From JBGPLH01 sp041486365 [NCBI: Thermodesulfobacteriota bacterium] (lineage in GTDB: Bacteria; JAUYMQ01), in NCBI GenBank assembly GCA_041486365.1, contig JBGPLH010000053.1:1-13526 (forward strand): a stretch of DNA of 13,526 bases. The letters run 5' to 3'. The notes beneath the pieces are model-generated. The model saw only the letters and a list, made by a program, of their open reading frames with translations. It made no database searches and was not told where the DNA came from. Both the position numbers and the translations under genes were made by a program. Shown one piece after another: positions 7,868 through 10,944 of this stretch. Within the stretch, counting starts at the first letter, position 1. Each line of letters begins with the position of its first letter.

Positions 7868-8512
7868 TCAGGAAGTGGACGGAGGCGTCGGGCGCCGCTT
7901 CTCGTCCGGACTACCGAGGCGCGCGTTGCAGGCACCGATCACATCGATCGCCGCGCCGCGCGCCGACTCGTACCGGTTGTACTCGCGGCGGATGTACTCG
8001 AGCCGCGGCTTGAGCAGGTGCGCCGGTTTGAGCAGCTGATCCTTGTGCCAGATGAGCCCCTCCCGCGATTCGCACGCGATCTCGACGTCGGGGGACATCA
8101 CGATTGCCTCCTCGGGGCACGCCTCCTCGCACAGGCCGCAGAACATGCAGCGCGACAGATCGATGTCGAATATCCGCGGGCGGCGCTCGATGGCTCGATC
8201 GGTCTCCTCCGGCACGATCGTGATGCAGCGGGGCGGGCAGGCGATCTCGCACATCCCGCAGGCCACGCAGCGCTCGGACCCGTCCGCCCGCGCCACGAGC
8301 ACGGGCATGCCGCGAAAGGCCGGTGGATACTGAACGCGCTGTTCGGGGTACTGGACGGTGGCGATTCGGGGCCTGCCGATGAGGAAGCCCCAGAGGTTCG
8401 AAAAGAAATGACGGGAGGTGACCGCCAGCCCGCGGATGATCTCCGGAAAGTAGAGCCGCTCCCAGAGATTGAGCGGCGCACCCCGTTTCACCTTCACGAC
8501 GCGTGCGGCCAT
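7868..8512 (-). CDS. nuoI: NADH-quinone oxidoreductase subunit I (complex I, two 4Fe-4S clusters)
   Basis: NuoI carries two tetranuclear iron-sulfur clusters (N6a, N6b) in the peripheral arm of complex I and relays electrons towards NuoB. The 214-residue product has TVQYPEQRVQYPPAFRG (52-68) and two ferredoxin motifs: Cys82, 85, 88, 92 (CVACGMCEIACPP) and Cys122, 125, 128, 132 (CMFCGLCEEACP). KDQLL follows as in typical NuoI. The C-terminal part after about 165 is an extension with a charged, proline-containing end. The ATG at 8512 is chosen over upstream in-frame sequence because MAARVVKVKRGAPLNLWERLY leads into the family region and GGGAGG precedes it. It lies 34 bp after the unknown gene that separates it from nuoB. 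No other nuo genes are in the window. Confidence 0.93.
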   Translation of the reverse strand: MAARVVKVKRGAPLNLWERLYFPEIIRGLAVTSRHFFSNLWGFLIGRPRIATVQYPEQRVQYPPAFRGMPVLVARADGSERCVACGMCEIACPPRCITIVPEETDRAIERRPRIFDIDLSRCMFCGLCEEACPEEAIVMSPDVEIACESREGLIWHKDQLLKPAHLLKPRLEYIRREYNRYESARGAAIDVIGACNARLGSPDEKRRPTPPSTS

Positions 8513-8546: not shown

Positions 8547-9128
8547 TCAGTGGAAGACGGACTTCTTCCACTCGTAGTACTTCCGGAACTTCGGCGAGTC
8601 CAGATCGGATTGCACGTTGAAGTAGTACTTGACCGTGTGCCCGCACACCCGGCAACGCTTGTAGTAGTAGTTCCGGCCCAGCTCCTCGTGGATTTTCCCG
8701 ATCCGCTCCCGGTTCGCATCGGTGCAGCAGGCCGCCGGGTAGGGCGGAGAGACGATCCGCTTCGGGTATTCGTTCCGCGGCTTCTGGTCCTTCGTGTAGA
8801 CGATGATCGACTTGATGACGGGGCGGGGACCGGTTTGCAACGGCCGGCCAGGGCGCCGGAGGGAAACCTTGCTGACCGGCAGTCCCTTGCGGATCATCGG
8901 TGCGGGAGCGGGCGGGGGCGGAGGCGGAGGCGCCACGGGCTTCGCCGCCCGCGACGCGGGCTTCGCAGGGCGCTTGCGGCTCGCGGGCTTGGCCGAGCGC
9001 TTGCGCCCGGCTGCGCGCACGGGCTTGCGCGCGGGCTTGCGCGCGGGCCGGGCCGGCCTTGCGCGGCGCGTTCGGTTGGCCTTCGCGGCCGTGATCTTTC
9101 GGGCCTTCCGGGTCGGAGAGGTCTTCAC
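8547..9128 (-). CDS. Unrecognised basic protein: Lys/Arg/Pro/Ala-rich tail plus possible zinc ribbon
   Basis: I do not recognise this 193-residue protein. Residues 1-65 are almost only Lys, Arg, Ala, Pro and Ser, with repeated KPA/RPA/RKP units like histone H1-type bacterial tails. Residues 67-73 are seven prolines. The rest looks folded, with a hydrophobic patch (VIKSIIVY, 104-111), a Cys pair at 134-135, and CRVCGHTVKYYF with Cys159 and Cys162. CC-x23-CxxC could bind zinc, in the style of NrdR or Ogr zinc ribbons, but that is inference. The start is GTG 9128, four bases after the nuoB stop, with only a weak AGTAGG before it. An ATG at residue 78 lacks a ribosome-binding site. GC-rich third positions through the tail support coding. 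Lying between nuoB and nuoI, it may be a lineage-specific complex I accessory or a nucleic-acid-binding protein. Confidence 0.8.
   Translation of the reverse strand: MKTSPTRKARKITAAKANRTRRARPARPARKPARKPVRAAGRKRSAKPASRKRPAKPASRAAKPVAPPPPPPPAPAPMIRKGLPVSKVSLRRPGRPLQTGPRPVIKSIIVYTKDQKPRNEYPKRIVSPPYPAACCTDANRERIGKIHEELGRNYYYKRCRVCGHTVKYYFNVQSDLDSPKFRKYYEWKKSVFH
9021..9044. repeat. Two perfect 12-bp tandem copies inside the basic tail
   Basis: GGGCTTGCGCGC occurs twice in direct tandem (9021-9032, 9033-9044). On the minus strand it encodes ARKP units of the basic tail of the unknown protein. The tail probably grew by small in-frame duplications. Confidence 0.7.
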
Positions 9129-9132
9129 GTGC

Positions 9133-9657
9133 CTACTTCGCGTCGAGCAGGGGAAGGTTGTCGAGCTCCACATGCCGGCCCGTCGGCGGGACGGGTTCAC
9201 GGCTCACCCGTTCCTGGAGCTTGATCAGGCCGTCGAGCACCGCCTCGGGACGAGGAGGGCATCCGATCACATAGATATCCACGGGGATGATCGTGTCGAT
9301 CCCCTGGACCGTCGCGTAGTTGTCATAGGGTCCGCCGGAGCAGGTGCAGCCCCCGAAGGCCATCACCCACTTCGGCTCGCACATCTGGTCGTAAACCTTG
9401 CGGAGGATTGGCGCCTGTTTGTGGCTGATTGTCCCCACCACCATCAGGAGATCCGACTGCCGGGGGGAAAACCGGGGAAGCGCCGCGCCGAAACGATCGA
9501 CGTCGTATCGGGGGCCGGCGACCGACATGAACTCCATGCCGCAGCACGCCGTGATGAAAGGATAGAGGAAGAACGAATACTTCCGACCCCATGCCACGAT
9601 CTTGTCCAGGCTGGACGTGAAGAACGGCGCGTCGTTGCCCAGTGCGACTTCCACCAT
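9133..9657 (-). CDS. nuoB: NADH-quinone oxidoreductase subunit B (complex I, cluster N2)
   Basis: NuoB holds cluster N2, which gives electrons to quinone. The 174-residue product has the usual length. Family motifs are WGRKYSFFLYPFITACCGMEF (23-43) with the ligand pair Cys38-Cys39, GPRYDVDRFG, DLLMVVGTISHKQAP, GGCTCSGGPYDNYATVQG (102-119) with Cys104, and YVIGCPPRPEAVLDGL (129-144) with Cys133. Cys106 is an extra cysteine where relatives usually have Ala or Ser. The ATG at 9657 has AGGGG (9665-9669) seven bases before it. A strong promoter match stands about 80 bp upstream, making nuoB the first gene of its unit. NuoC and NuoD, which normally follow, are missing; an unknown gene starts four bases after the stop. 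Confidence 0.95.
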   Translation of the reverse strand: MVEVALGNDAPFFTSSLDKIVAWGRKYSFFLYPFITACCGMEFMSVAGPRYDVDRFGAALPRFSPRQSDLLMVVGTISHKQAPILRKVYDQMCEPKWVMAFGGCTCSGGPYDNYATVQGIDTIIPVDIYVIGCPPRPEAVLDGLIKLQERVSREPVPPTGRHVELDNLPLLDAK

Positions 9658-9714: not shown

Positions 9715-9742
9715 ATTTTACTCAGAAAGCCCGGCCTGTCAA
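9715..9742 (-). promoter_or_regulatory. Sigma70-type promoter of the nuoB unit
   Basis: On the minus strand a perfect TTGACA (9737-9742) and TAAAAT (9715-9720, 5/6) are separated by 16 bp, in the gene-free stretch upstream of nuoB and beyond the icd terminator. Transcription would start near 9708 and leave a leader of about 50 bases. Confidence 0.75.
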
Positions 9743-9879: not shown

Positions 9880-9912
9880 AAAAAAACAACCCCCGGTGCG
9901 GAAACCGGGGGT
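9880..9912 (-). terminator. Intrinsic terminator of the ferritin-like/icd unit
   Basis: On the minus strand ACCCCCGGT and ACCGGGGGT form a perfect 9-bp stem around a 6-base loop, followed by TGTTTTTTT. It begins 30 bases after the icd stop. There is no T-run on the other strand, so it is directional. Confidence 0.92.
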
Positions 9913-9942: not shown

Positions 9943-10944
9943 TCACCCCAGCGCCTTTATTACCGCCTCCGTGAACTCGCGGGTCGTCGCCTTTCCGCCG
10001 AGATCGGGCGTGCGGCGGGTGACTTCCCCGATGACGCGGTGAACGGCCTTCGATATCCGCTCCGCGGCCTCGGCCTCGCCGATGTGCCGCAGGAGCTCGA
10101 CGCCGGAGAGGATCACCGCGGTGGGGTTCGCAATCCCCTTGCCGGCGATGTCGGAAGCGCTTCCGTGCACCGCCTCGAAGAGGGCGTACTCGGCGCCGAA
10201 GTTGGCGCCCGGCACGACACCCAGGCCCCCGACCAGGCCCGCGGTCAGGTCCGAGATGAAATCCCCGTAGAAATTCTCCATGACGAGGATATCGAACTGG
10301 CCCGGGTTGGTGACGAGCTGCATGCAGGTGTTGTCGACGATCCGCTCATTGTACTCGATGTCGGGGTAGCGGCTCGAGACGCGCCGGCAGCAGTCGAGGA
10401 AGAGGCCGTCGGACATTTTCATGATGTTCGCCTTGTGCACGGCCGTGACCAGCCTGCGCTTCTCCCGGACGGCGAGGCTGAAGGCGTACTCGGCGATCCG
10501 GAGGCTCGCCCGCTCGGTGACGATCTTCAGCGTCTCCACGACGCCGGGGATCACCTCGTGCTCGATCCCCGAGTACATCCCCTCCGTGTTCTCCCGGACC
10601 ACGATGAGATCGACCCCGTCGAAGGGCGTGCGTAGGCCCGGAATGTTCCGCGCGCGGCGCACGCAGGCGTAGAGGTCAAGCGTCTTGCGGAGCGAGACGT
10701 TCACGCTCACGAAGCCCTTGCCGATGGGCGTCGTCACCGGCCCCTTGAGGGCCGTCCTCGTATGGCGGATCGTGTCGACCACGGAGGGGGGAAGGGGTAC
10801 GCCGTGCTTCTTCATCGCCTCCGCGCCCGCGACGACCGAGATCCAGTGGATCTCGACGCCGGCCGCCGCGATGACCTGGAGGGCGGCATCGGTCACTTCC
10901 GGTCCGATCCCGTCGCCGGGGATCAGCGTGCACTCGTGCTTCAT
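9943..10944 (-). CDS. icd: NAD-type isocitrate dehydrogenase (isocitrate/isopropylmalate dehydrogenase family)
   Basis: The enzyme oxidatively decarboxylates isocitrate to 2-oxoglutarate in the TCA cycle. The 333-residue product belongs to the beta-decarboxylating dehydrogenase family. Substrate residues are Ser80, Asn82, Arg86 and Arg96 in SVNVSLRKTLDLYACVRR, Tyr124 in ENTEGMYSG, and Lys171 in HKANIMK. Metal-binding aspartates are at 204, 228 and 232 (NFYGDFISD). In HGSASDIAGKGIANPTA an Asp stands where NADP enzymes such as E. coli Icd have Lys, pointing to NAD. ENTEGMYSG and LRKTLDLYACVRR favour isocitrate over isopropylmalate; homoisocitrate is a remote alternative. The ATG at 10944 overlaps the stop of the upstream gene as ATGA, and GGGGAGGA precedes it inside that gene. 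Confidence 0.9.
   Translation of the reverse strand: MKHECTLIPGDGIGPEVTDAALQVIAAAGVEIHWISVVAGAEAMKKHGVPLPPSVVDTIRHTRTALKGPVTTPIGKGFVSVNVSLRKTLDLYACVRRARNIPGLRTPFDGVDLIVVRENTEGMYSGIEHEVIPGVVETLKIVTERASLRIAEYAFSLAVREKRRLVTAVHKANIMKMSDGLFLDCCRRVSSRYPDIEYNERIVDNTCMQLVTNPGQFDILVMENFYGDFISDLTAGLVGGLGVVPGANFGAEYALFEAVHGSASDIAGKGIANPTAVILSGVELLRHIGEAEAAERISKAVHRVIGEVTRRTPDLGGKATTREFTEAVIKALG

What the first reader, a model, noticed from the sequence alone, without database searches (positions are those of the whole stretch)
8547..9128. Unknown protein with an H1-like basic tail and a CC-x23-CxxC cysteine set, between two complex I genes
Seen: about 65 N-terminal residues made almost only of Lys, Arg, Ala, Pro and Ser with KPA/RKP repeats, seven prolines, then a domain with Cys134-Cys135 and Cys159-x2-Cys162 next to an aromatic-rich strand (KYYF). 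Known: Lys/Ala/Pro tails occur on bacterial histone H1-like and HU-type proteins, and CxxC pairs about 20-25 residues apart build zinc ribbons in NrdR and Ogr. Inferred: a metal-binding nucleic-acid protein, or a lineage-specific complex I assembly factor or subunit whose tail binds acidic surfaces. I cannot name a family.
Basis: partly seen in the sequence, partly recalled or inferred. Interest (0 to 1): 0.65.

Follow-up and report, generated by a model that had tools for sequence, protein, structure and literature searches.

The report
Clade-specific zinc-ribbon-like core protein
A small protein with four conserved cysteines, kept as a core gene by a group of uncultured bacteria, probably holds a metal and touches DNA or RNA; here it lies between two respiratory genes and may have gained a long positively charged tail, but relatives show no tie to respiration.

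Summary
The ORF is real. It encodes a small protein ('X') with four conserved cysteines and no convincing match in Pfam, NCBIfam, PHROGs or the PDB. Homologues occur in 85 of 90 genomes of one bacterial class and, comparing, in 0 of 287 other sampled genomes of that phylum. By NuoB the window is a deep sibling of that class. All four cysteines are invariant in 41 of 41 aligned sequences. Low-confidence models suggest a three-stranded zinc ribbon, weakly NrdR-like.

The complex I link is not conserved: in the class X lies with TANGO2 and folC-like genes, no NuoB/NuoI lies near it in 40 loci, and it persists in 15 genomes lacking any NuoB match, with only ferredoxin-grade NuoI matches. The Lys/Arg/Ala/Pro tail is absent from the 40 aligned homologues, which start near residue 78; in the window its coding support is modest.

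Best reading: a clade-specific housekeeping zinc-ribbon protein that binds nucleic acid or a ribonucleoprotein. The function is inferred, not shown.

The parts
8547..9128 (-). ORF of X, 193 codons plus stop, GTG start
   Evidence: 4 bases after the nuoB stop
8898..9128 (-). residues 1-77: Lys/Arg/Ala/Pro tail and proline run; lineage-specific extension or untranslated
   Evidence: composition; codon score best of six frames but below all 110 genic windows; absent from the 40 aligned homologues; tandem units of mostly 3n bases
8910..8930 (-). run of seven prolines, residues 67-73
8895..8897 (-). Met78, alternative start; MIRKGLPVSK is the best match in the ORF to the homologues' N-terminal block
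   Evidence: no purine-rich stretch upstream
8550..8819 (-). residues 104-193: conserved domain
   Evidence: alignments A1 and A2
8724..8729 (-). Cys134-Cys135, invariant in 41 of 41
8643..8654 (-). Cys159-x2-Cys162, invariant in 41 of 41
9133..9657 (-). nuoB, upstream neighbour
   Evidence: NCBIfam TIGR01957, 200 bits against a cut-off of 142.7
7868..8512 (-). nuoI, downstream neighbour
   Evidence: NCBIfam TIGR01971, 117.6 bits against a cut-off of 113.05
9715..9742 (-). promoter-like site upstream of nuoB (consensus match only)
   Evidence: 11 of 12 hexamer bases

Best explanation
X is a clade-specific, mostly single-copy housekeeping protein built on a zinc-ribbon-like fold. Cys134/Cys135 and Cys159/Cys162 hold one structural metal ion, most likely zinc; three strands (about ERIGKIHEE, RNYYYKRC, TVKYYF) and a C-terminal helix follow. 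A conserved basic N-terminal arm (MRRIGSN(I/L)R in the class; MIRKGLPVSK... in the window) and the aromatic, basic strands bind nucleic acid or a ribonucleoprotein such as the ribosome or RNA polymerase. In the window's lineage the gene lies between nuoB and nuoI and, if translation starts at the GTG, has an extra 77-residue H1-like tail that would add general electrostatic binding. Shown: homology, conserved Cys, clade distribution, changed gene neighbourhood. Supported only by low-confidence models: the ribbon. Inferred: metal identity, nucleic-acid binding, the tail's role.
For: Four Cys invariant in 41 of 41. X in 85 of 90 class genomes, 83 with one match, one (G232) with an extra contig-end fragment and one (G255) with two equal-scoring copies. 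X is more conserved than its FolC-like neighbour in 525 of 528 genome pairs (mean identity 0.655 against 0.489), as a core gene would be. Basic in the 40 aligned class members (pI mean 9.59, range 8.60-10.32) and in window residues 78-193 (10.05). Two models give three strands around the cysteines and a C-terminal helix. NrdR zinc ribbons head the structural list for the window model (Z 3.2, 3.0 and 3.0; 39-40 residues, rmsd 2.3-2.8) and recur for the L001 model (Z 2.7-2.8).
Against: Models are weak: mean pLDDT 53.6 and 53.0, only 33 and 15 residues at 70 or above. Foldseek's best E is 0.32. NrdR rows are tied with kinases, and unrelated folds rank above them (best Z 3.4). Profile comparison with NrdR gives 6.5% probability over 10 columns, just the CxxC knuckle. 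Adjacent Cys-Cys is unusual for a zinc-ribbon knuckle (recalled). Nothing tests nucleic-acid binding, and the best PDB profile match (E 0.063) is a Euglena complex I subunit, aligned without counterparts to the four cysteines.
Confidence: 0.4

Rival explanations
1. X is a complex I accessory subunit or assembly factor, comparable in role to the zinc subunit NDUFS6, whose tail grips acidic surfaces of the NuoB/NuoI module.
For: Gene order nuoB-X-nuoI with 4- and 34-base gaps and a promoter-like site before nuoB. The weak PDB profile match is complex I subunit NDUEG13 (E 0.063). zf-CHCC has no hit over its cut-off in 10 of 10 class genomes, so that role would be vacant.
Against: No NuoB or NuoI match in the stretches (3.4-14.7 kb) around X in 40 class loci; in the 7 of 8 genomes where nuoB was found it is on another contig. 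The nuoB neighbourhoods read in 7 class genomes hold lpd, E2, lipB, nuoI or nuoD, but X is elsewhere. Of 33 X-bearing genomes chosen for lacking a strong NuoB hit, 17 have no NuoB match at E 0.001, and 15 of these have no NuoI match better than 1.5e-10. No His between the Cys pairs is conserved, unlike zf-CHCC (its pattern is recalled). The NDUEG13 alignment lacks the cysteines.
Confidence: 0.08
2. Translation starts at Met78. The mature protein is a 116-residue family member, and the tail is untranslated spacer that only looks like an H1 tail.
For: The 40 aligned homologues begin at a block that matches MIRKGLPVSK at Met78 best. Tail codon score 0.045 against a genic minimum of 0.076. 86 other 77-codon windows elsewhere in the window, in any frame, are equally basic, acid-free and stop-free.
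Against: No Shine-Dalgarno-like stretch before Met78 (GCCCGCTCCCGCACCG), whereas 35 of 40 class starts have GAGG, AGGA or GGAG in 16 nt; but the GTG has only a weak one, GACGCGAAGTAGGCAC. A Met78 start leaves a 235-base gap after nuoB. The tail frame is the best of six, Lys is AAG in 11 of 11, and four of five tandem-repeat periods are multiples of three.
Confidence: 0.35
3. X is a redox, Fe-S or metal-carrier protein: Cys-Cys and CxxC ligate a cluster or transfer metal, rather than build a structural zinc site.
For: A fifth Cys stands at position 155 in 34 of 41. Tandem Cys ligate cluster N2 in NuoB (recalled), whose gene is adjacent here.
Against: Strand-knuckle-strand models with CxxCG fit a ribbon; Cys155 is missing in 7 of 41, the window among them; no ferredoxin, thioredoxin or chaperone profile matched.
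Confidence: 0.15

Closest known systems
NrdR (TIGR00244), N-terminal zinc ribbon
   Same: Two Cys pairs about 23-24 residues apart on a three-stranded ribbon; structural match over 38-41 residues, Z 2.7-3.2
   Different: First pair is CC, not CxxC; no ATP-cone in a 108-residue protein; profile comparison 6.5%; 10 of 10 class genomes tested have a separate NrdR
zf-CHCC / NDUFS6 zinc subunit of complex I (PF10276)
   Same: Small protein with a CxxC knuckle; nuo neighbours in the window
   Different: No Pfam match in 41 members; no conserved His between the Cys pairs; not linked to nuo in the class
Histone H1-like and AlgP-type Lys/Ala/Pro tails (recalled)
   Same: Composition of residues 1-65
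   Different: Only in the window's version; no homologue with a tail found, and translation of the tail not shown

Membership tests
Zinc ribbon (fold group) | Two Cys knuckles that can hold one zinc, conserved across the family | tested here: met
   CC and CxxC invariant in 41 of 41; zinc itself not tested
Zinc ribbon (fold group) | Three-stranded ribbon fold | tested here: inconclusive
   Three strands in both models, but pLDDT mostly 57-77 there and Z at most 3.2 to NrdR
NrdR | NrdR profile match (zinc ribbon plus ATP-cone) | tested here: not met
   TIGR00244 not among NCBIfam matches of any of 41 members at E 1; hhalign 6.5%
zf-CHCC / NDUFS6 | Pfam PF10276 match and a His ligand between the Cys | tested here: not met
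   No match in 41 members at E 1; no conserved His between Cys135 and Cys159
Complex I subunit or assembly factor | Conserved genomic and phyletic link to nuo genes | tested here: not met
Complex I subunit or assembly factor | Physical association with complex I | not testable with these tools
   Needs biochemistry
H1-like DNA-binding tail protein | Translated Lys/Ala/Pro tail | tested here: inconclusive
   Codon score best of six frames but low; no tail in the 40 aligned homologues

The most novel reading that the evidence does not exclude
X is an undescribed core component of the transcription or translation machinery of one bacterial class and its sibling lineage: a zinc-ribbon protein with an unusual CC knuckle and a basic arm, retained almost everywhere in that class. 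The window's lineage fused an H1-like tail to it and placed it between nuoB and nuoI.
Probability: 0.2. Interest if true: 0.65.

Novelty: new variant of a known kind. Interest (0 to 1): 0.4.

Why it matters
A gene present in 85 of 90 genomes of a class, more conserved than its FolC-like neighbour and without a convincing family match marks an unrecognised core function of uncultured bacteria. It also shows why a single neighbourhood misleads: the nuoB-X-nuoI order suggested a respiratory role that relatives do not share.

Tried and rejected
Whole-genome search of the window's own genome was not possible: none is held. Scans of viral contigs with A1 and A2 gave pattern matches but no confirmed relative. 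Plasmids gave no match with the window domain or with one class member. Phages gave only Vibrio phage ICP1 records at E 0.4, read as chance. Weak profile matches judged chance: PHROGs at best 0.13; PDB SAP30-binding protein 0.22, NDUEG13 0.063 and PerR 0.89; Pfam zf_C2H2_13 0.016 in 8 of 41 members and Zn_ribbon_Nudix 0.011 in 1; NCBIfam TIGR04076 0.0032 in 4 and Nop10 0.0038 in 2. Apart from NrdR, the structural matches (kinases, chromo shadow domains, WD40, PTB, CBF-beta) were not followed. X as a stand-in for a missing NrdR: rejected, 10 of 10 class genomes have NrdR.

Papers: six searches, listings only, no paper opened. NDUEG13: 0 papers. Complex I + Myxococcota + zinc ribbon: 0 (Myxococcota was a guess at the phylum, never established). 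Zinc ribbon/complex I/nuoB/nuoI: 53, of which 10 listed, none with 'zinc ribbon'. H1-like tail terms: 1. TANGO2/folylpolyglutamate/zinc/Deltaproteobacteria: 1, without TANGO2. NrdR terms: 15, of which 8 listed. I make no claim beyond these that the family is unpublished.

40 of the 85 class homologues were aligned. Other phyla could not be sampled, so 'clade-specific' holds only within this phylum. A first script for NrdR failed and was mended.

Full report
What is there. On the minus strand, 9128..8547 encodes 193 residues from a GTG. Residues 1-77 are Lys/Arg/Ala/Pro-rich and lack Asp and Glu; the rest holds Cys134-Cys135 and Cys159-x2-Cys162. nuoB lies 4 bases upstream and nuoI 34 bases downstream; both match NCBIfam models over the cut-off. 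A promoter-like site (11 of 12 hexamer bases) precedes nuoB. The order suggests one transcription unit (inference).

Family. The protein has no Pfam match, no NCBIfam match at E 1, PHROGs at best 0.13 and PDB at best 0.22. A scan of genome contigs gave two relatives, in MAGs named only 'Deltaproteobacteria bacterium'. From these, X was found in 39 of 188 genomes sampled from their phylum (a second centre in the same phylum gave 39 of 188 with nearly the same genomes), in 85 of 377, and in 85 of 90 genomes of the class. Comparing the lists, the 90 class genomes lie within the 377, which leaves 0 of 287 outside the class. Of the 85, 83 have one match, G232 has an extra fragment at a contig end and G255 has two equal-scoring copies. 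I aligned 40 of the 85 with the window: identity to the window is 35-47%, and the four cysteines are invariant in 41 of 41, as are Gly163, Tyr156 and the PxNxYPxxIxSP core. Members scanned one by one gave only weak family matches, best E 0.0032.

Where the window belongs. Window NuoB was searched in the 377 genomes; 272 match at E 1e-40. The 54 best-scoring genomes (72-80% identity) are all members of the class by comparison; the best others reach 69-70%. A tree of 43 NuoB sequences joins the window to the class at 100/97 support, on a long branch; whether it falls outside the class is unresolved (class alone 52/73). So X was probably inherited vertically, and its position changed.

Neighbourhood. 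In 40 class loci the recurring neighbours are a TANGO2-like gene (found in 35) and a folC-like Mur-ligase gene (39), with a patatin and an MFS gene further out in many. The TANGO2-like stop overlaps the X start by 4 bases in 19 of 35. The X start codon is TTG in 36 of 40, against 2 of 34 for the TANGO2-like gene, and 35 of 40 have a Shine-Dalgarno-like tetramer in 16 nt. No match to window NuoB, NuoI, Lpd or LipB occurs in those 40 stretches of 3.4-14.7 kb. nuoB lies on other contigs in the 7 of 8 genomes where it was found.

Complex I dependence. Reading the lists together, I chose 33 X-bearing genomes without a strong hit to the window's NuoB. Against the NuoB family model, 17 of 33 have no match at E 0.001 and 3 of 33 exceed the cut-off. 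Against the NuoI model, 32 of 33 have some match but 1 of 33 exceeds the cut-off. Fifteen have no NuoB match and no NuoI match better than 1.5e-10, which I read as ordinary ferredoxins. Thirteen others have NuoB-like matches below the cut-off (E 1e-13 to 4e-41) and may carry divergent complexes. These are draft genomes, so single absences can be gaps, but X itself is missing in only 5 of 90. X therefore does not depend on canonical complex I.

Fold. Two AlphaFold2 models from three-row alignments (window first; L001 first) have mean pLDDT 53.6 and 53.0, with the ribbon region at about 57-77. Both show three strands and a C-terminal helix. Foldseek gave nothing better than E 0.32. VIA-align put NrdR zinc ribbons on ranks 1-3 for the window model (Z 3.0-3.2), tied with kinases just below. 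For the L001 model NrdR appears at Z 2.7-2.8, under unrelated folds at up to 3.4. Profile comparison supports only the CxxC knuckle. Zinc ribbon is the best guess, not a demonstration.

The tail. The aligned homologues have no tail; their N-terminal block matches best at window Met78. Codon choice in the tail is the best of six frames but below every genic window of the same length. Equally basic, acid-free, stop-free windows occur elsewhere in this GC-rich DNA (86). For translation speak 11 of 11 Lys as AAG, the 4-base gap to nuoB, tandem periods of 6, 12, 24 and 27 bases beside one of 10, and the lack of a ribosome site before Met78. I give about 60:40 for a translated tail.

Function. X is more conserved than its FolC-like and TANGO2-like neighbours (mean identity 0.655, 0.489 and 0.457 in 33 genomes), basic and nearly universal in its class. 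A small structural zinc protein that binds nucleic acid or a ribonucleoprotein is the reading that fits best; it is inferred from composition, cysteines and weak fold likeness, and no call tests binding.

Noticed in passing
L001, L002, L067-L104 (X start): The X gene starts with TTG in 36 of 40 class loci, against 2 of 34 for the TANGO2-like gene before it; a conserved rare start codon, part of it in 4-base stop/start overlaps.
   Followed up: partly
L105-L111 (around nuoB): In the class nuoB often clusters with lpd, E2 and lipB, and hemE- and hemH-like genes lie near by eye, much as nuoB-X-nuoI-lpd-E1-E2-lipB in the window.
   Followed up: partly
G042, G086, G112, G245, G250 and others: Some class genomes carry NuoB-like and NuoI-like genes near or below the family cut-offs, a few kilobases apart on one contig; possibly divergent complex I-like enzymes.
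   Followed up: no
window 9889-9912, minus strand: A strong terminator-like hairpin with a T run follows the dehydrogenase gene at 9943-10944 and precedes nuoB.
   Followed up: no
PDB chain 8iuf_ED against A2: The best PDB profile match is Euglena complex I subunit NDUEG13 (E 0.063), aligned over KPxNxxPKR without the cysteines; probably chance, but odd given the window's neighbours.
   Followed up: partly
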